Both the position numbers and the translations under genes were made by a program. A stretch of DNA of 64,000 bases from Gemmatimonadota bacterium (GTDB lineage: Bacteria; Gemmatimonadota; Gemmatimonadetes; Gemmatimonadales; Gemmatimonadaceae): the NCBI GenBank assembly GCA_021324775.1, contig JAJPIM010000001.1:1-64000 (forward strand), in the 5' to 3' direction. The notes under the pieces are model-generated. The model ran no database searches and was not told where the DNA came from. It was given only the letters and a program-made list of their open reading frames with translations. Positions 2,629 through 48,338 of this stretch are shown here, piece by piece (the first letter of the stretch is position 1; every line of letters begins with the position of its first letter).

Positions 2629-3166
2629 GCACGCGCCCGGTGCGCACCCCCGCCGATCGGCCGAACGCGCGCTGGGCGATGGACTTTGTGCACGACTAAA
2701 CGGCGAGCGGCGCGACGTTCCGCGTGCTCACGGTGATCGATGTCTTCTCCCGCGAGTGTCTCGACCTTGTGGCGCGATCGCGCTTTCGCGGCGAGGATGT
2801 CGCGGCGGCACTCACCACGCTGCTCGTGCAGCGGGGGTGACCGGCGGTTCTACAATGCGATCAAGGAACCGACTTCACGTCGATGGCCGGGACGCCTGGG
2901 CATACTGGCAGCACATTCCGCTCGACTTGAGCCGGCGTGGTACCCCAGGCGACAATGCGGTGAACGAAGCCTTCAACGGCTCCCTCAGCCGGGAGTGTCT
3001 ATCGCAACATCACTTTTACTCGATCGAAGACGCGCAGCAGATCTTGGATGCCTGGCAGGCCGAGTACAACAACGAGCGGCCGCACACCAGCTTGCACGAC
3101 CTGGCGCTGGCTCACTTTCGAGCCCAAGCCAGCTTCACCCCAGAGCCAATCGCGCAGATTTCCTAA
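2629..3166 (+). pseudogene. IS3-family transposase OrfB (rve integrase core), degenerate
   Basis: The first frame reads RPNARWAMDFVHD, a stop, then FRVLTVIDVFSRECLDL and CDQGTDFTS. After a frame change it continues NAVNEAFNGSLSRECLSQ and YNNERPHTSLHDL. These are the DDE landmarks of IS3 OrfB: D of MDFVHD, D of DQGTDF, E of NEAFNG. At least two in-frame stops and one frameshift rule out a working transposase. The 5' third is missing. It lies between the membrane gene and the Rhs immunity gene, opposite to both. Confidence 0.85.
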
Positions 3167-25347: not shown

Positions 25348-25548
25348 GACTTGGCGACCTCGGTGCACTGACCAACTGACACCGTTTGCGCCGGGTCCGG
25401 CTCTGAATCGAGCGAGATGATCGACCACGTCCCGCCCGGATAGCTGTGCGGTACGTGCAGCACCCCGGAGTCTGTCGCTGTCATGAAGACCACCGTGATC
25501 ACGCGTAGACCAGCCGCAGGGCGATCGCCGAACTCCTACCGACCCTCA
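25344..25548 (-). pseudogene. Remnant of small lipoprotein (paralogue of 40330-40764)
   Basis: The GTG start at 25548 sits just downstream of the beta-propeller gene stop, in the same GTGACGCGGTGAGG context as the intact copy at 40764. The middle is deleted. The end reads AGLRVITVVFMTATDSGVLH, then HSYPGGTWSIISLDSEPDP, matching IGLQAITVVFTTRTDVGVLH and HSYPGGSWSLSSLDAEPDP of the intact gene, and stops at 25344-25346. The reading frame between start and end is broken. Confidence 0.8.
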
Positions 25549-27137: not shown

Positions 27138-28709
27138 TCAGCGCAACCGCAACGATCCGGGGGCCGTCAGCGATGCCGCTGACGATGCTCGCCGAGTCGT
27201 GGTGCGAGCCGCCGACGTGCGCCGCATCGTCCGGCCCGCCCCAGCGGTACCACTGGACCCCGGCCGCCAGGTCGGGGAGGCGAGTCCCGCAGTAAACGGA
27301 AGCGGCAGCACGAGACCTGACGACACGTTGATGAGATCAATGGAGCCGTTCTGGTATCGGCCCGCGACGACCCACGCTCCATCCGGAGACCAGTCGATGC
27401 CAATCCCGTAGCTGACACTCGATGAGCTGATCATCCGGGATCCGGTACCGTCCGCATGAACGACCATGATCGGTCCGTCCAATTCACCCGCGATGTATGC
27501 GATGAGATCGGAGTTCGTCGACCATTTCGGCGAGATGGCTGGGATTCCCGGGTTGAACACGGCACCTGTCGCGATCGTGAGGATGCGCAACAGCGGTGTG
27601 CCATTGCCGATGTAGGCGAGTTGCGACCCGTCCGGTGACGGCGATGGCATGTAGTTGTTGTCGGTCAGATTCACGCGCAGCGAGTCGGCCCCCGTTCCAT
27701 CGGGATGCACCCGCCACATCGCTTGCGGCGCCCCGTTCGCGTACCGCCCGAAGTAGATCCACATTCCGTCGCGCGAGTAGTCGGGCCACGTGTCCATGTA
27801 GTTGGCCGGTGGATTATCGGCGATGAGGATCGTTCCGGAAATCGTGGCGAGGGATTCGGTGCCACCCGGGCCGAAGAGGAGGCTCGTGGACGCATCGTTG
27901 AAGAGGACCATCGTGCCCGTCGGATCCCACTTCGCAGTCGTCGCGTCGGCATGCACCAGCGTCTGAAAGCCGGAACCGTCGAGGTTGAGCATCACAATGG
28001 CGGTGTCGAATGAGATTGCGGCTAGCGTGCCTAGCGGCACGACCGAGGCAAAAATCGTGTCCCGGGCCGTGGCGGATGCTGCCACGATCGTGACTCGCCC
28101 GATCGCGGCGCCGGTCAACACGGATCCCGAGGTCGTCGCCGGACCTGAGGCGATCGTGTAGCCGATCACCCTGCCGCGCGTCGTATTGCCGAATCGATCA
28201 GCGGTCGTCGCGCGGAGGGTTTCGGTGGCGTTGACGTAGATCGCCGTGTCGGCGGGGGCGGCCGAGATTTGGGTCGTCGCGCCGGGCAGTACAGTGAACG
28301 GCACCGTGTCGACGAACCCGAGAACCGGCGCGGCCACGATCACGCGTGCTGTCCCAGCGACGGTGCCGAGCTGCACTCGCACGCTTGCCTCGCCCGCGTC
28401 ACCCGTCGTATCGACCACGAAGGTCGCCAGCCCAGGCGAGCCCGGTGGGATCACGTACGCGTCGGTCGTTCCGTCGGAGTTCAGCAGCGATGTAAATTGA
28501 ACGAGCTGGTGGACGCTCGATTGGCCCGGCCCAGCTACGAGCCGGATCACGAGCGCCTGCGCGGGAGTCGATTGGACGGTGTCGCTCTGCGCGCCACCTG
28601 CGATAATGAGGATGCCGGGTTTACCCGGGGCGGTGGCGCTCGAGCACGCGAGGGCGGCGACCAGAGGGCAGGCACTCAGGAGGTACGCCCGCAACGACGG
28701 TCCAGACAC
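27138..28709 (-). CDS. Beta-propeller (PD40/TolB-like) lipoprotein, tandem paralogue
   Basis: 523 aa from the GTG at 28709. The lipoprotein signal MSGPSLRAYLLSACPLVAAL ends in lipobox ALAC. The layout is the same as its neighbour: Ig-like domains, then PD40 repeats (PSPSPDGSQLAYIG, SPKWSTNSDLIAYI, GIDWSPDGAWVVAG). The start region and upstream ~90 bp recur at 40866-40960, where only the first ~40 codons are left. Function unknown; such propellers often bind partners or substrates in the envelope. Confidence 0.85.
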   Translation of the reverse strand: MSGPSLRAYLLSACPLVAALACSSATAPGKPGILIIAGGAQSDTVQSTPAQALVIRLVAGPGQSSVHQLVQFTSLLNSDGTTDAYVIPPGSPGLATFVVDTTGDAGEASVRVQLGTVAGTARVIVAAPVLGFVDTVPFTVLPGATTQISAAPADTAIYVNATETLRATTADRFGNTTRGRVIGYTIASGPATTSGSVLTGAAIGRVTIVAASATARDTIFASVVPLGTLAAISFDTAIVMLNLDGSGFQTLVHADATTAKWDPTGTMVLFNDASTSLLFGPGGTESLATISGTILIADNPPANYMDTWPDYSRDGMWIYFGRYANGAPQAMWRVHPDGTGADSLRVNLTDNNYMPSPSPDGSQLAYIGNGTPLLRILTIATGAVFNPGIPAISPKWSTNSDLIAYIAGELDGPIMVVHADGTGSRMISSSSVSYGIGIDWSPDGAWVVAGRYQNGSIDLINVSSGLVLPLPFTAGLASPTWRPGSSGTAGAGRTMRRTSAARTTTRRASSAASLTAPGSLRLR

Positions 28710-28908
28710 CAGCCACTCCGGTGGTTAGAGCGGCCTCAAGTGTGTCGCAATTATTGGGAACGCGCAAGTAGCGTTAGTGACGGCGCCCGTTTGGTTGGAC
28801 TAGCCCGAATTCCGGACCGGCGCGCCGACGATGGCGTCCTTGTAACCGATGAATACGTGGATGTAACTGCTGCGCGCGGCGGCTAATCAATGCCCCGGCC
28901 GGTTCGAC

Positions 28909-30227: not shown

Positions 30228-30629
30228 TCATGGATCAACTGCATCCGGTCCTCCAATAAGCTGCTTCGCAACAGAAATGATCGCGAGCATTACGAACAAA
30301 TCTACAATGCCAAACGGTACGAGCGCCGGTCCGGGCACCCACCTGTCCGTCCAGGGAACTAACAAAATCAACGCGACATGAAGTCCCACGATGACCAGCA
30401 TCGTAATCCAAAACCATACCCGCCGCCTCAGGTTCCACTTAATCGCAACGGCGCAAGCAAGCATCCCCATGCCAAACAATGTAGGCAGCGCAAGATTAAG
30501 CTTGCCGAAGTGATCGAATAGCCAAGGGATCGGCATACTCCCTACAATGCAACACAGTACGCCCCACCAGGGTAGGCGCAGCTTCTTGGCTACTCGAGCG
30601 TCGGCCTTTATGTCGCTGACTACTGACAC
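30228..30629 (-). CDS. Membrane protein, unknown function
   Basis: 133 aa; ATG at 30629. Four helices: WWGVLCCIVGSMPIPWLF, LALPTLFGMGMLACAVAI, VWFWITMLVIVGLHVALILL and FGIVDLFVMLAIISVAKQLI. Its first ~15 codons (MSVVSDIKADARVAKKL) and ~90 bp upstream recur at 32014-32152 in front of a different gene. No family recognised. The small, four-helix design fits a membrane immunity protein, but no toxin partner is adjacent. Confidence 0.65.
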   Translation of the reverse strand: MSVVSDIKADARVAKKLRLPWWGVLCCIVGSMPIPWLFDHFGKLNLALPTLFGMGMLACAVAIKWNLRRRVWFWITMLVIVGLHVALILLVPWTDRWVPGPALVPFGIVDLFVMLAIISVAKQLIGGPDAVDP

Positions 30630-30715
30630 TGTGAGACCACCTTTGCTGTTTTGTAACCATCCAGCATAATCGAACCGACGGCGAGGGCTTGCTTAGCGAC
30701 AGGCACGGCTGAACG
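30578..30715 (-). repeat. Duplicated 5' block, copy 1
   Basis: This ~135-bp block includes the start and upstream region of the membrane gene at 30228-30629. It matches 32014-32152 at roughly 80% by eye: CAGCTTCTTGGCT, ATGTCGCTGACTACTGACAC, CACCTTTGCTGTTT, GGCTGAAC at the far end. It likely carries a promoter and ribosome site. Confidence 0.75.
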
Positions 30716-31481: not shown

Positions 31482-32018
31482 CTAGACGTTCTCGATGACA
31501 TGAATGAGCTCCGAGGCAGTAAATACGCAACCATCGCCTCCGTCACTGAACAATGCACGACGAATAGGCGCGACCCGCTCGATAGCCGAGGGAGGATACG
31601 CCAACTCACTGATCCATCCCGCACACGGTTTGAACAACGCGATAGCGGTCAGGACTTCCCAACAAAGAAATGTGGACTGAGGTGTGTCATCCGCCGGCGC
31701 CAGGGCGACACAAACGCTGAACTCTCCAACCGGGCGAAGCGCGGCTATCTCATGTTCCTCGAGTGCGTAAGCTCTTATGGACGCGGCCGCCGCATCTGGA
31801 CCCCTGAGTGCTAGCTGATGATGCACCGCTCCAGGCGTGGCTTCAACGGCCGTCAGCGTACTATCCGCAGCGAATCCGCGCACGGCGTCGAGAAGCGCGT
31901 CGGCGCTTCTATTGTCGGGAACGAGACAACGATAGAGAACCACTATGGTAGTACACGCCGGACACCCGTAATCGGTGTCAGTGTCCCATTGCCATTTCCA
32001 GCCCAAATGCCCAGGCAC
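31482..32018 (-). CDS. Hypothetical soluble protein
   Basis: 178 aa, ATG at 32018. No signal peptide or membrane helix. Central residues such as ADALLDAVRGFAADSTLTAV and YALEEHEIAALRPVGEFSVC suggest an alpha/beta fold. The copy 2 promoter block (32014-32152) lies directly in front, and its short coding relic (MNADARAAKKLCLG) is in another frame. The gene may thus use a promoter borrowed by duplication. Family unknown. Confidence 0.55.
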   Translation of the reverse strand: MPGHLGWKWQWDTDTDYGCPACTTIVVLYRCLVPDNRSADALLDAVRGFAADSTLTAVEATPGAVHHQLALRGPDAAAASIRAYALEEHEIAALRPVGEFSVCVALAPADDTPQSTFLCWEVLTAIALFKPCAGWISELAYPPSAIERVAPIRRALFSDGGDGCVFTASELIHVIENV

Positions 32019-32152
32019 AGCTTCTTGGCTGCTCGTGCGTCGGCGTTCATGTCGCTGACTACTGACACTGTGCGGCCGCCTTTGCTGTTTCGTAACAGTC
32101 CAGGATAACTGAACGGATCGCGAGAGCTTGCTGAACGAGAGACAGGGCTGAA
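32014..32152 (-). repeat. Duplicated 5' block, copy 2
   Basis: Second copy of the block at 30578-30715. It keeps the ATG and ~12 codons of the four-helix membrane gene (MNADARAAKKL), then switches to unrelated sequence. It reads as a truncated gene start fused upstream of the 31482-32018 gene. Confidence 0.75.
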
Positions 32153-32329
32153 CCTAGCAATCCAGGAGCGGTTAAGCCCGTTGAAAGCAACCCTTTCCGA
32201 CACGGGCGTGCAAGAATCAAGACGACGGTTCGGTACGATCGGCGGAGTGAGCGCGTCAAGCGGAGAGGGGCGGACTTGCTACGAGTGCCGAGCCAGTAGA
32301 ACTGCGCGCCGGGTTGCGGGTACTGGGGG

Positions 32330-36629: not shown

Positions 36630-36658
36630 TATGTATCGATATGCGACAGTCATACATA
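36630..36658 (+). promoter_or_regulatory. Inverted repeat before vapB
   Basis: TATGTAT (36630-36636) and ATACATA (36652-36658) are 7-bp arms around a 15-bp spacer ending at the vapB start codon. Type II antitoxins of this family bind such repeats for autoregulation; the site is inferred. Confidence 0.5.
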
Positions 36659-36864
36659 TGAAGACTACCCTCAACATCGATGATGCCCTGTTGGCGGAGG
36701 CGGCTAGGCTGACGGGGATCACGGAGAAACCCGCCCTGGTGCGGGCCGGTCTCAAGGCGCTGATCGCGATCGAGCGCGGTAGGCTGCTAGCACAACTCGG
36801 CGGCACGGAACACGATCTGCGCGCGATTCCGCGCCGACGAGCGACGCGGCGCACGGCCTCGTGA
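36658..36864 (+). CDS. vapB: VapB-family antitoxin
   Basis: 68 aa from the ATG at 36658. MKTTLNIDDALLAEAARLTG then ITEKPALVRAGLKALIA is the ribbon-helix-helix N-terminus of the VapB/DUF2191 antitoxin family. The C-terminus (LAQLGGTEHDL) is the toxin-binding part. Its stop overlaps the GTG of a truncated vapC by 4 nt (GTGA). With the toxin broken, this is a solitary antitoxin. Confidence 0.85.
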   Translation: MKTTLNIDDALLAEAARLTGITEKPALVRAGLKALIAIERGRLLAQLGGTEHDLRAIPRRRATRRTAS

Positions 36865-36941: not shown

Positions 36942-36988
36942 CAACGAATCATTCAAGCAGAGGTCCGAGGCGCGCCCGGCGCGGGCAC

Positions 36989-37060
36989 CGTATCCTATTG
37001 AAAGAGTTCCGTCACCCACGCATCGCCTCTCTCGCGGTAACCCGGACCCGCCCGCCACCG
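36989..37060. repeat. Flanking repeat A, copy 1
   Basis: About 70 bp matching 39714-39782 with small indels (CCTATTGAA..GAGTTCCGTCAC, GCATCGCCTCT, CGCGGT, CCGGAC.CGCC.CCACC). With repeat B it flanks the glycosyltransferase gene. On the minus strand it encodes the tail of the 37012-37272 frame. Confidence 0.75.
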
Positions 37061-37272: not shown

Positions 37273-37726
37273 AAAGGCTACCAGGCCAACGAGTACTTGG
37301 GCCTAGCCTTTGCGGCAGAATCCACCTTCTCGTAAGGGCTCGCTCCATCGCTGTTCAGTACGCCAGTCGCTCCCGCGAGGTTGACGCTAACTGGCCGCTT
37401 ACTCTTGAGTCTCCCCGTGGGATCGCGTTGGCGGGACACGCCCACGCCACAAGCGAACTGTTCCGCCCTTACTCCTGAATCTGCCAGTACCGTAATACTG
37501 CGGGCGCGCTGACCTCCAACGGGAACTGGCGCCAGGACGTGATAACTCGAACACGCAATTGGCGCGTACACCAAACGGTGCCTCTAAAGAAAACTCATAC
37601 CAAGGACGGTATGGTCTTGCCCAACCTGCACGACGCGCTGAGCCTGGACCGGCTGATACGCCCCGCGCCGCTCGACTCGCTAGAGCAAGGTCGGGAGTTA
37701 CGGAATAGCCAGGAGTTGGCCGCGCC
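37273..37726. other. Intergenic, repeat B, no clear gene
   Basis: About 450 bases upstream of the glycosyltransferase. A minus-strand 98-codon frame (37278-37574) exists but its composition is not convincing. Repeat B copy 1 lies at 37381-37445. Confidence 0.35.
37381..37445. repeat. Flanking repeat B, copy 1
   Basis: Matches 39785-39843: TTGAC..., CTGGCCGCTTACTCTTGAG vs CGGCCACTCACTATTGAG, then TCTCCCC and TTGGCGGGAC.CGCCCAC. In the downstream copy repeats A and B are adjacent; here they are ~320 bp apart. Confidence 0.7.
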
Positions 37727-39598: not shown

Positions 39599-39895
39599 AT
39601 CGAACGATCCGATTGGCCACAGGTAACGGTGATCGATGTGGGATCCGGAGCCGACCGCGATTGGACGGGATGTCATTCACACCGAGCCCCGTGCGGAATG
39701 CACCGGTCGGGCATCGTAGCCTATTGAAGAGTTCCGTCACCTCGCATCGCCTCTCGCGGTGAGCCGGACGCGCCCCCCACCGTGTTGACCGGCCACTCAC
39801 TATTGAGTCTCCCCAGAGGACTGCTTTGGCGGGACTCGCCCACCACTCCTCGGGGTACGCGGTGTGCGTCCGATACCGCCCGATGCTTCCCGACG
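39599..39895. other. Intergenic with repeats A and B (copies 2)
   Basis: About 300 bases holding repeat A (39714-39782) and repeat B (39785-39843) next to each other. No gene seen. Confidence 0.6.
39714..39843. repeat. Flanking repeats A and B, copies 2 (adjacent)
   Basis: The joined A+B block matches the two separate blocks at 36989-37060 and 37381-37445 in the same orientation. The GT-C gene lies between the copies. Confidence 0.7.
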
Positions 39896-40329: not shown

Positions 40330-40764
40330 TCACGGACTGGCCCCCCTGTCCGCAGCCTCCGGGTCCGGCTCCGCATCGAGCGAGCTGAGGGACCACGATC
40401 CGCCCGGATAGCTGTGCTGTATGTGCAGCACCCCGACGTCGGTCCGTGTCGTGAAGACTACCGTGATCGCCTGTAGTCCAATCGTATCGGTGTAATGCGC
40501 CCGCGCGAACTTCGCGATCAGCAACGCCCGCTCCCGACCCATCCCCGGCGTCACTTTCTCCGCCTCGCCCTCCGGGGCCTGCGCCGACAGTATCAATGCG
40601 CCGTTCGTGGTCCGTGTCACGACGAAGGGCTGTTGAAACTGCGCCTGCAAGGCAGTCGACAGCGCCCACATGCCGCTGAGCGTTCTCCTGACATCGGCGC
40701 AGCCGGCAGCCATGACACCAAGCGCGATGAGCACCGCGGCCGCGGCCGCGCGACGCGTCCTCAC
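40330..40764 (-). CDS. Small lipoprotein, intact member of a duplicated module
   Basis: 144 aa from the GTG at 40764, which overlaps the stop of the remnant upstream (GTGA). Signal RTRRAAAAAVLIALGVMAAG with Cys in MAAGC, a lipobox. Mature: LSAQAPEGEAEKVTPGMGRE then RALLIAKFARAHYTDTIGLQ, AITVVFTTRTDVGVLHIQHS and the tail YPGGSWSLSSLDAEPDP. A decayed copy lies at 25344-25548 in the same gene order. Function unknown; the fold of the C-terminal ~70 residues appears alpha/beta. Confidence 0.75.
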   Translation of the reverse strand: MRTRRAAAAAVLIALGVMAAGCADVRRTLSGMWALSTALQAQFQQPFVVTRTTNGALILSAQAPEGEAEKVTPGMGRERALLIAKFARAHYTDTIGLQAITVVFTTRTDVGVLHIQHSYPGGSWSLSSLDAEPDPEAADRGASP

Positions 40765-40892
40765 CGCGTCACCGCCCACGCGCACGCGACGTCACTAGGC
40801 TCAAGACCGGGCGTGACGGCACTCGAACAGGCGACGCTAGCTACCAGAGTGCGGGTACAGAGGACACACGCCCGCAAAGACGGTCCAAACAC
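40761..40892 (-). pseudogene. Remnant of beta-propeller lipoprotein (5' end only)
   Basis: GTG at 40892 starts MFGPSLRACVLCTRTLVASV then ACSSAVTPG, clearly the signal peptide and lipobox of the gene at 27138-28709 (SGPSLRAYLL..CPLVAALACSSATAPG). Only ~43 codons remain; the propeller is gone. The upstream ~70 bp also match (28710-28780 vs 40893-40960). It shows that this locus once had the same module. Confidence 0.8.
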
Positions 40893-41234
40893 CGGCACTC
40901 CAGGGATTGCAGCGGCCTCTAGTGTGCTGCTATAGCTGGGAATGCGCAAGTAACGTCAGAGGAATCCGGTGTTCGAATGACGCCACACGCCACACGCCAC
41001 GTTGGCCAGGCAACCCGCCGGCGCGCCGGAACCGCGAACTGACGCGGTTGCGATGGCTAAGTTGTAACCGTCGCATACGCCGTGTAACCGCACGGTGAGG
41101 TGGCCGTATACTCAACAATCTGGCCAATTACCGTGTTGGCCAAACGAGCCGGCGCGTGTGATCTTGTCCACTGGCAACACGTCACTTTCCACGTGGCGCC
41201 GCAGTTTGTGCCTGCATGCGTCCAAAGGCACGCC
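40893..41234. other. Intergenic, no clear gene
   Basis: About 340 bases. The left part repeats the promoter region of the 27138-28709 lipoprotein. A minus-strand frame ending at 41057 (tail ANTVIGQIVEYTATSPCGYT) might be the end of a lost exported protein. Support is weak. Confidence 0.35.
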
Positions 41235-41642
41235 CTATGTCGCGTCACGGAGTGTGAGCGAGGCCGAGGCTGCGAGCTCCAGCGCGCACTGCTTTCGTGC
41301 CTCCTTTTCCTCTGGCCAGTTGCGGATTTCAGCATGGCGAGGCGGAACATCATCTCGCACGAGCGTGAGTCCTGCAGTGGTTACAACTGAGGCAATCACC
41401 GTGGCCGCGCCGCGCACACGACGCACTGGTGACGGAACGACGTGCAGGTCGCCGAGCGCCCACACCGCACGCGCGTCCAGACCCGTAGTCCGAAAGACCG
41501 AAAGTCCCGTCGCGAGCCGCGAAGGCAGAAAGGCGCTACTGCTGACCTGGTGCCGTTCCTTGTGCCAGTGGCTGCTCTGGGTGAGGAACCGAGCTAGGGG
41601 CTCGTCGGGCGTCGCCGCAATGGTGTCAACTGCCGCGGTCAC
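41235..41642 (-). CDS. Third gene of TIGR04255-type operon, unknown function
   Basis: 135 aa from a GTG at 41642 that overlaps the upstream stop (GTGA). The sequence has the pattern LARFLTQSSHWHKERHQVSS, AFLPSRLATGLSVFRTTGLD, AVWALGD and PPRHAEIRNWPEEKEARKQC followed by ALELAASASL. I recall similar small proteins with an SVFR..GL and RHA.I..WP signature as uncharacterised. Soluble. Tight coupling to the two upstream genes implies one functional unit. Confidence 0.75.
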   Translation of the reverse strand: MTAAVDTIAATPDEPLARFLTQSSHWHKERHQVSSSAFLPSRLATGLSVFRTTGLDARAVWALGDLHVVPSPVRRVRGAATVIASVVTTAGLTLVRDDVPPRHAEIRNWPEEKEARKQCALELAASASLTLRDAT

Positions 41643-42124
41643 CCTAACGCGCTGAGCCGCTGGAGGTTTGCTATGATGGCGCGCGGTAGTTGCGTGCCGA
41701 GCGGCTCCTTGCCACGGGCGCGGGCCGGGCCAAATAGACCTGCATACGTCAGATCGCCGGCAGCTGAGATGCTCACGCTGAACGCCGCGTGCGCTCCGCG
41801 AATCCACTCCAACGTGACCTCGCCATCAGCATCCACACCGATCAGTGGGGCTGGGAACGCCGCAGGCAGCAATTCGAGGAACACCTGCGCCTGTTTGTAC
41901 GAGCCAGCAAGGATGGCATGACCACCAGCCCCGTCCCAGTCGGTGGTTGCGGCGTCCATACAGGCGTTATCGAGTGATGCAATCAGGTCGGTCCAGCGGC
42001 CGGTCGCGTCACGCGCTGTGGCCAGGGCGCTACGCAGGCGATTGTAGAGACCGTGGGTTTCGGAATTCACCGCGCTGTCGGCGTTCCACATCGAGCCCGG
42101 AATGTCTGGTGCGAACACGGTCAT
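41639..42124 (-). CDS. Second gene of TIGR04255-type operon, unknown function
   Basis: 161 aa. The ATG at 42124 overlaps the stop of the TIGR04255-like gene by 4 nt (ATGA). The N-terminal part is helical (LYNRLRSALATARDATGRWT), then DWDGAGGHAI and FLELLPAAFPAPLIGVDADG, EVTLEWIRGAHAAFSVSISA, DLTYAGLFG. The last stretches look like a small beta-sandwich. The DWDG.G and D.DGEV.LEW motifs are family-like. Function unknown; likely partners with its neighbours. Confidence 0.75.
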   Translation of the reverse strand: MTVFAPDIPGSMWNADSAVNSETHGLYNRLRSALATARDATGRWTDLIASLDNACMDAATTDWDGAGGHAILAGSYKQAQVFLELLPAAFPAPLIGVDADGEVTLEWIRGAHAAFSVSISAAGDLTYAGLFGPARARGKEPLGTQLPRAIIANLQRLSALG

Positions 42125-42864
42125 TGATAGCGCCTCAGAGTCGTCTCGGTGACACTACCGAAGAAGATCCGGTTCTTGAGGGCTCGCAAGTCCGAGAAGG
42201 CCTGGGGAACACGGTCGTGCACTATACCGTCCGGTACTTGGCGGTATGCGTCAATGTCGAGAATGATGACGGCGAGATTTGGATTCGGGCCAACTTGCGA
42301 CGCGAGAACGACAGTCGCCCCGGCGTTCAATTCCGGATCGACGAGGACGATGCGGGTCAGAAATTCCGTCATGGGAGTGGAAATATCGGCGGGAAACCCC
42401 GGTAGCAGAATGAAATAGTCGGTCAAATCCGCTCCCGGGATGGGAATTTCTATCTGATTGATGTATCGCAGGCTGAGACGCGTGCACGGCGGCGGGTCGG
42501 CCGTTTTGCGGTACAGTTCCCACAGCCGCAGTGCTTCGGGCCGAAGCTCGTCCCAACTGGTATAAGGGCGCAGCCGATTGAACGTGAAGCCATCACGCCG
42601 GAACTGAGCGATGGTGAGGCGGTCGGCCGATCTGAACACGTAACCCCGTAACTGTGGCTCTTTAACATCGGCCGCTGATACGCCAAGTCCGATGCGGAGG
42701 AAGGCTTGATGTTGAGTTTGCTGCTCCACCACGGGATACCGGTCATGGAGCGCCTCGGCCAATGCCTGGAATCGGCCCATGTCAAATGTGTCAGGCAACG
42801 TGGTCTGAAAATCGACCATCGCCTCGGCGATTGGCGCGTGCTCGAGATGGCGAGGTTCAGCCAT
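42121..42864 (-). CDS. TIGR04255-like family protein
   Basis: 247 aa from the ATG at 42864; upstream in-frame residues are not protein-like. The start MAEPRHLEHAPIAEAMVDFQ then FQALAEALHDRYP and QAFLRIGLGVS, RGYVFRSADRLTIAQFRRDG, FTFNRLRPYTSWDELRPEAL fits my memory of the sporadically distributed TIGR04255 family. The C-terminal half includes RLSLRYINQIEIP and a D..VLPGFP-like loop. First gene of a three-gene minus-strand operon with 4-nt overlaps. Function unproven for the family. Confidence 0.75.
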   Translation of the reverse strand: MAEPRHLEHAPIAEAMVDFQTTLPDTFDMGRFQALAEALHDRYPVVEQQTQHQAFLRIGLGVSAADVKEPQLRGYVFRSADRLTIAQFRRDGFTFNRLRPYTSWDELRPEALRLWELYRKTADPPPCTRLSLRYINQIEIPIPGADLTDYFILLPGFPADISTPMTEFLTRIVLVDPELNAGATVVLASQVGPNPNLAVIILDIDAYRQVPDGIVHDRVPQAFSDLRALKNRIFFGSVTETTLRRYQ

Positions 42865-44878: not shown

Positions 44879-44892
44879 ATGCGCATGGTTAA
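44821..44892 (+). pseudogene. HigB toxin stub
   Basis: GTG at 44821 opens 23 codons, TIGSTRHKDLKHRYQG, resembling the N-terminus of HigB/RelE-type toxins (F.HKGLK..YE). The rest of the toxin is gone and the frame runs 14 nt into higA. Together with the intact operator and antitoxin it indicates loss of the toxin by deletion. Confidence 0.55.
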
Positions 44893-45169
44893 CCCGCCTC
44901 ACCCGGGCGATTTCATCCGGACCGAGATCCTCGAGCCGCTTGGCCTATCCGTCACTGTTGCAGCGGCCGCCCTGAGGGTATCTCGGCCCGCACTATCGAC
45001 CCTGCTGAACGGTCACGCCAACCTGTCCGGCGAAATGGCGCTCCGCATCGAAAAAGCATTCGGGGTCAGGATGGACACCCTGCTGCGGATGCAGAACTCG
45101 TACGACATCGCTCAAGCGCGCCTGTTGGAACGAAAGATTCGTGTACCCCGATATCGAGCTGTCGCGTAG
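44879..45169 (+). CDS. higA: HigA-family antitoxin
   Basis: 96 aa. [20 protein letters not shown] then [20 protein letters not shown] and [20 protein letters not shown] are the complete HigA/VapI helix-turn-helix signature. The C-terminus ([18 protein letters not shown]) is the usual toxin-neutralising arm. It would bind the palindrome upstream and repress its own promoter. The cognate toxin is only a stub, so it acts alone or against a toxin elsewhere. Confidence 0.9.
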
Positions 45170-47876: not shown

Positions 47877-48338
47877 TCACTCAGCAGCGAGTAGCGCGTC
47901 AAAGCCAGCTTGCCGAAAGTGACGGTCCCCGGTAGCAGCCAGGGTGATCCCGAGGTCTTCCATCACGACGAACGAGAGGCAATCCGTCAGGCCCCACGTT
48001 TTGTCCGGTCTGCCCTGGTAGCGGTCGATGGCACGGGAAAGCAACGTGGTCGTAACCGGGACGACGGTCATATTGGGTGTCTCGTAGCAGGCCCGGATGA
48101 AATCGGCCGCCGCCGCCCGATCTTTGTCGCTGAGGGCGTCGCCGATCTCCATCAACACGGCCTCGGTGATCACGGTCTCGATTGCCGCCTCGACTCGGGG
48201 CGCGAGCGCGAGTGCGCGCGCGTGGTAAGCATCGTCGGGGTTGAGCACTGCCTGCACATAGAACGTATCGACCAGAAGCCGCTCCCCTGCGTGCGGTGCT
48301 GGGGTGCCTGCGGCGTCGATGGGCGCTCTCTTTGGCAT
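47877..48338 (-). CDS. PIN-domain toxin (VapC-like)
   Basis: 153 aa. LLVDTFYVQAVLNPDDAYHA contains the first catalytic Asp; ITEAVLMEIGDALSDKDRAA provides the Glu; TWGLTDCLSFVVMEDLGITL the third and fourth acidic residues; TGDRHFRQAGFDAL the family C-terminus. All four metal-binding acids are in place, so RNase activity is likely. It follows the RelB/DinJ-type antitoxin by 36 nt on the same strand. Confidence 0.88.
   Translation of the reverse strand: MPKRAPIDAAGTPAPHAGERLLVDTFYVQAVLNPDDAYHARALALAPRVEAAIETVITEAVLMEIGDALSDKDRAAAADFIRACYETPNMTVVPVTTTLLSRAIDRYQGRPDKTWGLTDCLSFVVMEDLGITLAATGDRHFRQAGFDALLAAE

What the first reader, a model, noticed from the sequence alone, without database searches (positions are those of the whole stretch)
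41235..42864. TIGR04255-type three-gene operon with 4-nt overlaps
Three soluble proteins of no known function are translationally coupled (ATGA, GTGA). The first resembles the sporadic TIGR04255 family; the second and third have their own conserved-looking signatures. Location among decayed toxin-antitoxin genes and sporadic distribution make it a candidate mobile stress or defence unit. The functional claim is inference only.
Basis: partly seen in the sequence, partly recalled or inferred. Interest (0 to 1): 0.55.

Follow-up and report, generated by a model that had tools for sequence, protein, structure and literature searches.

The report
Three-gene module with predicted ADP-ribosyltransferase-fold protein
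Three tightly packed bacterial genes form a conserved unit whose last protein is predicted to have the fold of enzymes that transfer ADP-ribose from NAD, which suggests a toxin-antitoxin-like conflict module built around the otherwise unexplained TIGR04255 protein family.

Summary
On the minus strand lie A (42121-42864, TIGR04255, 136 bits), B (41639-42124) and C (41235-41642), with ATGA and GTGA overlaps. A-B-C recurs as a unit: 17 of 57 TIGR04255 genes examined carry both B and C downstream, including three IMG/VR contigs, and A, B and C distances co-vary. New result: an AlphaFold2 model of C (pLDDT 84.8, four sequences) has an ADP-ribosyltransferase (ART) fold. The 25 best structural matches are all ART-superfamily proteins (Tpt1/KptA Z 8.2, AvrPphF ORF2, DarT, Tne2). 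Arg18, Ser48 and His103 are invariant in 12 of 12 aligned C proteins. TIGR04255 heads other modules too; in two the third gene is a known toxin type (RES, zeta). Best reading: a modular toxin-antitoxin-like conflict unit with C an NAD-using toxin, B its neutraliser or adaptor, A a scaffold or sensor. Fold and linkage are computed; toxicity, neutralisation and defence are inferred.

The parts
42121..42864 (-). Gene A, 247 aa, TIGR04255 family; predicted duplicated beta-alpha (TBP-like) fold; first gene of the operon
   Evidence: NCBIfam TIGR04255 136.3 bits against cut-off 30; AlphaFold2 pLDDT 83.8, pTM 0.80 on 7 sequences; Foldseek best E 1.3e-3 to TBP, VIA Z 8.6 to guanidino kinases
41639..42124 (-). 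Gene B, 161 aa, family with the core W-D-G-Y-G-A ... P-x-P-x-I ... D-P-D-G-E ... E-W (window: W-D-G-A-G-G ... D-A-D-G-E ... E-W); inferred neutraliser or adaptor of C
   Evidence: B homologues downstream of A; B-type homologues hit PADLOC candidate PDC-M32A weakly
41235..41642 (-). Gene C, 135 aa, GTG start; predicted ART-fold protein, inferred NAD-using toxin or effector
   Evidence: AlphaFold2 pLDDT 84.8, pTM 0.78 on 4 sequences; the 25 best of 50 listed VIA rows are ART superfamily
42121..42124 (-). A/B overlap ATGA (start of B in stop of A), conserved -4 in 10 of 12 intact loci
41639..41642 (-). B/C overlap GTGA; seen only in the window among 12 intact loci
41589..41591 (-). Codon of Arg18 of C (predicted strand 15-20): candidate motif I residue
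   Evidence: invariant in 12 of 12; secondary structure; motif role inferred
41499..41501 (-). Codon of Ser48 of C (predicted strand 47-51): candidate motif II residue
   Evidence: invariant in 12 of 12; secondary structure; motif role inferred
41334..41336 (-). Codon of His103 of C (predicted strand 103-107): at the place where classic ARTs carry Glu/Asp/Gln
   Evidence: invariant in 12 of 12; secondary structure; motif role inferred

Best explanation
The operon is a toxin-antitoxin-like conflict module. C is an ART-fold enzyme that uses NAD+ (it ADP-ribosylates a cellular target, possibly a nucleic acid, or destroys NAD+) and so arrests the cell. B, made by translational coupling just before C, binds and neutralises C or delivers it. 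A, the constant TIGR04255 protein, is a duplicated beta-alpha (TBP-like) scaffold or sensor that holds B-C inactive and releases C on a trigger such as infection. Elsewhere the same A is combined with other second and third genes, including RES and zeta toxins, so A would be a chassis for exchangeable toxin pairs. Shown here by computation: gene order and co-inheritance, predicted ART fold of C, invariant Arg/Ser/His, exchange of partners behind A. Inferred: NAD chemistry, toxicity, neutralisation by B, sensing by A, any role against phages.
For: (1) Model of C: 25 of the 25 best of 50 listed VIA rows are ART superfamily, Z 8.2 to 3.5, first other row Z 3.1. (2) R18, S48 and H103 invariant in 12 of 12 C proteins, each on a predicted strand. 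(3) Third-gene slot of other TIGR04255 operons holds a RES domain (PF08808, 45.5 bits) in 1 and a zeta toxin (PF06414, 46.8 bits) in 1 of 57 loci; RES is an ART-superfamily domain (PMC9503650, passages read). (4) Second-gene slot holds an XRE-type HTH protein in 12 of 57, weakly like Pfam's antitoxin Xre-like HTH (E 6.4e-4, below its cut-off). (5) Of 13 full-length C genes, 12 sit with A and B, and B is open in all 12; C is broken beside intact A and B in 2 loci (L079, L037). (6) A, B and C co-vary. (7) Full operons in 3 IMG/VR contigs. (8) Neighbours of 29 TIGR04255 loci hit 301 PADLOC models, controls 6.
Against: Foldseek alone gives only E 0.41 for C against Tpt1, and a best Z near 8 is what models without a clear match typically reach (tool note). 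No Pfam, NCBIfam or PADLOC family matches C, and hhalign finds no kinship with one KptA (1.1%). His at the third position fits none of the three ART active-site profiles named in PMC9503650, so C may be inactive or of another chemistry. Two C-like genes (L107 full length, L109) have no A and no HMM-detectable B within reach. The broken C genes may be sequencing errors. B has no fold or functional evidence. No phage, plasmid or PADLOC record holds the trio as a known system.
Confidence: 0.5

Rival explanations
1. C is an NAD-dependent nucleic-acid processing enzyme of the Tpt1 kind (2'-phosphate removal or end modification), and the operon is an RNA or DNA repair unit, not a toxin module.
For: Tpt1/KptA gives the best structural rows (Z 8.2-6.8); neither Tpt1 (passages read) nor C uses a catalytic Glu.
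Against: C has no N-terminal RNA lobe and does not match a KptA profile; its sporadic, mobile distribution, partner exchange with RES and zeta toxins and decay of C are not those of a repair gene.
Confidence: 0.15
2. C keeps the ART fold but is not an enzyme; A-B-C is a binding complex, for example a phage- or element-borne regulator, with A as a TBP-like nucleic-acid binder.
For: His103 replaces the usual Glu; A resembles TBP in Foldseek (E 1.3e-3 to 5e-3); the operon sits in viral contigs.
Against: Arg18, Ser48 and His103 are invariant although mean identity is low, which is typical of an active site; A matches guanidino kinases as well as TBP, so its fold does not name a function.
Confidence: 0.17
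3. Roles are reversed or different: B is the active component and C modifies or restrains it, with A a chaperone.
For: B-type domains occur without A or C in six IMG/VR contigs (L133-L138) and resemble part of a candidate defence protein.
Against: B is the best preserved of the three where A and C are broken, as expected of an antitoxin; the third slot, not the second, holds known toxins elsewhere.
Confidence: 0.1
4. In this genome the operon is a non-functional relic in a region of decaying horizontally acquired DNA.
For: B and C have a weak coding-composition signal (not called), no sigma-70-like promoter was found, and the region has lowered G+C.
Against: All three frames are full length, all conserved residues are present and dN/dS against the nearest relatives is below 1 (0.19, 0.26, 0.42 for A, B, C; dS near saturation).
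Confidence: 0.08

Closest known systems
CmdTAC (mRNA-targeting ART toxin, antitoxin, SecB-like chaperone; PMC11618068, passages read)
   Same: Three-gene operon with an ART-fold protein and two small partners; a toxin restrained by partners would be the shared logic.
   Different: CmdT carries H-Y-[EDQ], C carries R-S-H; CmdC is SecB-like, A is TBP-like in the model; gene order is reversed; no PADLOC hit (I did not verify that the library holds a CmdTAC model).
RES-Xre toxin-antitoxin systems (search listing only)
   Same: ART-superfamily NAD-consuming toxin; a RES protein takes the third slot of one TIGR04255 operon and XRE-type proteins the second slot of 12.
   Different: The window has neither a RES domain nor an XRE protein, and has a third gene, A.
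DarT/DarG (mentioned in PMC9503650, passages read)
   Same: ART-fold protein in a conflict module; DarT is among the structural matches (Z 5.3 and 5.1).
   Different: No macrodomain or NADAR partner is seen; no sequence match.
Tpt1/KptA RNA 2'-phosphotransferase (PMC6333775, passages read)
   Same: Best structural match of C (Z 8.2, rmsd 3.0, 98 residues).
   Different: C lacks the N-terminal RNA lobe and profile kinship (hhalign 1.1%).
TIGR04255 (sporadTIGR04255, NCBIfam)
   Same: A is a member (136.3 bits).
   Different: The family carries no function; this report adds its partners and a predicted effector.

Membership tests
TIGR04255 | Score over the curated cut-off across the model | tested here: met
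   136.3 bits, cut-off 30, model 2-250 of 252
ART superfamily (C) | ART fold | tested here: met
   At model level only: 25 best VIA rows all ART, Z 8.2-3.5; Foldseek alone weak, E 0.41
ART superfamily (C) | Sequence match to a known ART family | tested here: not met
   No Pfam or NCBIfam hit at E up to 10; no PDB sequence kin
ART superfamily (C) | One of the active-site profiles R-S-E, H-Y-[EDQ] or H-H-h | tested here: not met
   R-S-H in 12 of 12; profiles from PMC9503650; assignment of motif positions inferred from predicted strands
ART superfamily (C) | NAD+ binding or turnover | not testable with these tools
   Needs protein
Tpt1/KptA (C) | Profile kinship with KptA | tested here: not met
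   hhalign probability 1.1% against one KptA; PF01885 not hit
Tpt1/KptA (C) | N-terminal RNA lobe with Arg-His of the Arg-His-Arg-Arg tetrad | tested here: not met
   C is 135 aa and aligns only to the C-terminal lobe of Tpt1 (residues 84-182)
TAC / CmdTAC | SecB-like chaperone | tested here: inconclusive
   A's listed rows are TBP and guanidino kinases; SecB not among the 50 rows shown
TAC / CmdTAC | CmdT-type H-Y-[EDQ] triad | tested here: not met
   C carries R-S-H
RES-Xre toxin-antitoxin | RES domain (PF08808) with XRE-type partner | tested here: not met
   No hit in the window trio
Known or candidate PADLOC defence system | Clear PADLOC model hit | tested here: not met
   Only B, E 0.0095 to PDC-M32A; L140 B 2.3e-6 and L137 B 1.8e-5
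Toxin-antitoxin system (function) | C toxic alone and neutralised by B or A | not testable with these tools
   Needs expression tests

The most novel reading that the evidence does not exclude
TIGR04255 is the constant chassis or sensor of a whole class of tripartite conflict systems with exchangeable partner-effector pairs: an R-S-H ART branch (this operon), RES, zeta, DUF7689 and 'CD' proteins. C founds an ART branch whose active site uses His in place of Glu.
Probability: 0.4. Interest if true: 0.78.

Novelty: new variant of a known kind. Interest (0 to 1): 0.58.

Why it matters
TIGR04255 is a named but unexplained family: two full-text searches of the held 5.39 million open papers found no mention. 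Showing that it heads three-gene units with exchangeable second and third genes, some of them known toxin types, gives it a testable role. A predicted ART fold for C turns an anonymous gene into a concrete biochemical question (does it use NAD+, and on what?), and the R-S-H pattern would be an unusual active site if it works.

Tried and rejected
Integron cassette: the own genome has no TIGR02249 match over the cut-off, and repeat searches gave only a few paired intergenic repeats; dropped.

Plasmid or phage spread of the trio: A hits only 3 plasmids and no phage record; window B and C hit no plasmid, viral C and B no plasmid, viral C no phage record.

Sequence kinship of C with the third genes of classes C' and 5, which by eye keep R...S...H: hhalign 0.6% and 1.4%, so not claimed.

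Solved-structure search with profiles: A matched a designed solenoid (9hnh, E 0.006; its paper was seen in a listing only), B nothing, C only 3hxg at E 1.2; all set aside as chance. Viral structure library for C: best hit an unnamed 149-aa protein, E 0.025; not followed.

SecB-like chaperone fold for A: not among the 50 rows shown; this does not exclude it. PADLOC neighbour test: 29 of 57 loci used, up to 5 nearest called genes of at most 800 aa each, A plus 1.4 kb downstream left out; the tool lists 25 of 301 families and one specificity protein can hit many models, so I cannot give the number of distinct defence proteins or loci. B-like partner of the orphan C in L107: seen by eye only, not by HMM. 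Chained gene picks are meaningless beyond frameshifts and were not used there.

Full report
What is there. Three frames on the minus strand, A (42121-42864), B (41639-42124) and C (41235-41642), overlap by ATGA and GTGA. A is TIGR04255 at 136.3 bits. B and C match no Pfam, NCBIfam or PHROGs family over a cut-off; B has a faint PADLOC hit (PDC-M32A, E 0.0095), stronger in two B-type homologues (2.3e-6 and 1.8e-5). The organism was not told; the genome has 4.19 Mb in 46 contigs and this is its only TIGR04255 gene.

It is a conserved unit. TIGR04255 occurs in 40 of 395 genomes of the phylum. I took 57 TIGR04255 genes: 48 from those genomes, two from named genome contigs (L002, L003), three from plasmids and four from IMG/VR contigs. 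Downstream of them: B with C 17; XRE-type with 'CD' protein 10; 'CD' protein only 8; HEAT-like with DUF7689 5; B only 3; class 5 pair 3; XRE-type only 2; C' only 2; B with C' 1; RES 1; zeta 1; none of these 4. Class labels are mine, from phmmer with picked representatives at E 1e-4; 'HEAT-like', 'CD', C' and class 5 are by-eye names, while DUF7689, RES and zeta rest on Pfam. Among 12 loci with all three genes open, the A-B distance is -4 in 10, the B-C distance varies, and the three distance matrices correlate (r 0.85, 0.62, 0.63; 0, 3, 4 of 5000 permutations as high). dN/dS is below 1 wherever dS could be computed.

C is predicted to be an ART-fold protein. The AlphaFold2 model, from an alignment of four (window, L092, L093, L140), has mean pLDDT 84.8 and pTM 0.78. 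Foldseek alone is weak: best hit Tpt1 (1wfx) E 0.41, KptA structures also among its first 30. The second look with VIA is consistent: rows 1-25 of 50 are all ART superfamily (Tpt1/KptA Z 8.2-6.0, AvrPphF ORF2 6.6, DarT 5.3, Tne2 5.0, PltA 4.6, pertussis S1 4.3, rifampin ART 3.5, cholera A 3.5), and the first other row has Z 3.1. That these entries share the ART fold I partly recall; for Tpt1 and the toxins it is stated in passages of PMC6333775. The tool warns that best Z values of 7-8 are common in models without a true match, so the agreement of the list counts for more than the top value.

Candidate active site. In the 12-sequence alignment Arg18, Phe38, Pro40, Ser48, Val49, Pro100, His103, Ala120, Leu123 and Ala124 are invariant. 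Arg18, Ser48 and His103 lie on the predicted strands 15-20, 47-51 and 103-107, the order of ART motifs I, II and III (recalled). PMC9503650 names three active-site profiles, H-H-h, H-Y-[EDQ] and R-S-E (passage); R-S-H is none of them. So C is ART-like in fold, not filed as a member of any ART clade. No coordinates were available to check that the three residues meet in one groove.

A and B. The model of A (seven sequences, pLDDT 83.8) is a duplicated beta-alpha unit: Foldseek's first 17 hits are TBP (E 1.3e-3 and up), while VIA favours guanidino kinases over the whole length (Z 8.6). This fits a scaffold or binding fold but names no function. B has no model; its conserved core is W-D-G-Y-G-A and P-D-G-E...E-W. 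B-type domains occur alone in six IMG/VR contigs.

Why toxin-antitoxin-like. The third slot behind TIGR04255 holds a RES domain in one locus (45.5 bits, cut-off 23.2) and a zeta toxin in a Vibrio plasmid (46.8 bits, cut-off 22.3). PMC9503650 places RES in the ART superfamily. The second slot holds XRE-type proteins in 12 of 57 loci, with a sub-threshold match to Pfam's antitoxin Xre-like HTH. In the survey of broken genes 13 loci have a full-length C; 12 of them also have A and B (A cut by a contig end in L140) and one (L107) has neither. C is broken beside intact A and B in L079 and L037, and broken, partial or missing with A also broken or missing in L085, L045, L046, L050, L103, L106 and L112; L109 matches C only in part and has neither A nor B. 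In seven of these nine (L079, L037, L085, L045, L050, L103, L106) B is still largely open. That is what loss of a toxin under a retained antitoxin would look like, but assembly errors can do the same.

Mobility and neighbourhood. Full A-B-C lies in three IMG/VR contigs (L092/L132, L093/L125, L140), A alone at a contig edge in L139. L093 also codes for a large serine recombinase (TP901-1 integrase, E 5.6e-23). Neighbours of 29 TIGR04255 loci of all classes (142 proteins) hit 301 PADLOC models at E 1e-5, among them mad2 in 4 proteins, mad3 in 3, mad8 in 3 and type I specificity subunits in 2; 134 proteins of 29 control stretches of largely the same contigs hit 6 models. Pfam lists PIN in 3 and Phd/YefM antitoxins in 3 neighbours, neither among the 25 families shown for the controls. 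The count is of models, not of independent loci, and is not specific to the A-B-C class.

Against housekeeping. KptA occurs in 1 of 151 genomes of the order, and C in 16 of 395 of the phylum, so neither is a core gene.

Verdict. A new variant of a known kind: a tripartite ART-type conflict module around TIGR04255. Nearest in logic is CmdTAC (PMC11618068, passages), from which it differs in triad, chaperone fold and sequence. The claim 'ART-like fold' I hold at about 0.8; 'toxin with B or A as neutraliser' at about 0.5; 'anti-phage' lower, perhaps 0.3.

Noticed in passing
57 TIGR04255 loci, e.g. L059, L067, L087: 18 of 57 TIGR04255 genes are followed by a protein with a [ST]-x-[ST/D]-C-D-[ILV] motif and no Pfam hit in the four members scanned; its fold is unknown.
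   Followed up: partly
L002, L070, L076, L084, L086: TIGR04255 followed by a HEAT-like protein and a DUF7689 protein (122 bits in L002); conserved N-C-[IV]-A and T-H-A-A-R-Q patterns look like a papain-type Cys/His pair (by eye).
   Followed up: partly
L133-L138: B-type proteins alone in six IMG/VR contigs, not next to A or C.
   Followed up: no
window 25391-25512 and 40359-40480; 28623-28777 and 40806-40959; 30574-30714 and 32013-32153; 36949-37060 and 39673-39782; 37390-37445 and 39788-39843: Paired imperfect repeats (74-84% identical), some between genes, in the low-G+C stretch; unexplained.
   Followed up: no
window 20000-48000: Long stretch of lowered G+C and weak coding signal between G+C-rich, well-coded flanks, as in a region of acquired DNA.
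   Followed up: no
window 36658-36861, 44879-45166, 47880-48338: VapB-type, HTH_3 and PIN genes around the operon; partners not sought.
   Followed up: no
window 2855-3163: Fragment of an integrase core domain (rve_3).
   Followed up: no
L107:1477-1938, L109:1471-1935: Divergent C-like proteins without A; both keep R...AF...SV...H with N-P-[FH]-H-A-D-I-E-L-P.
   Followed up: partly
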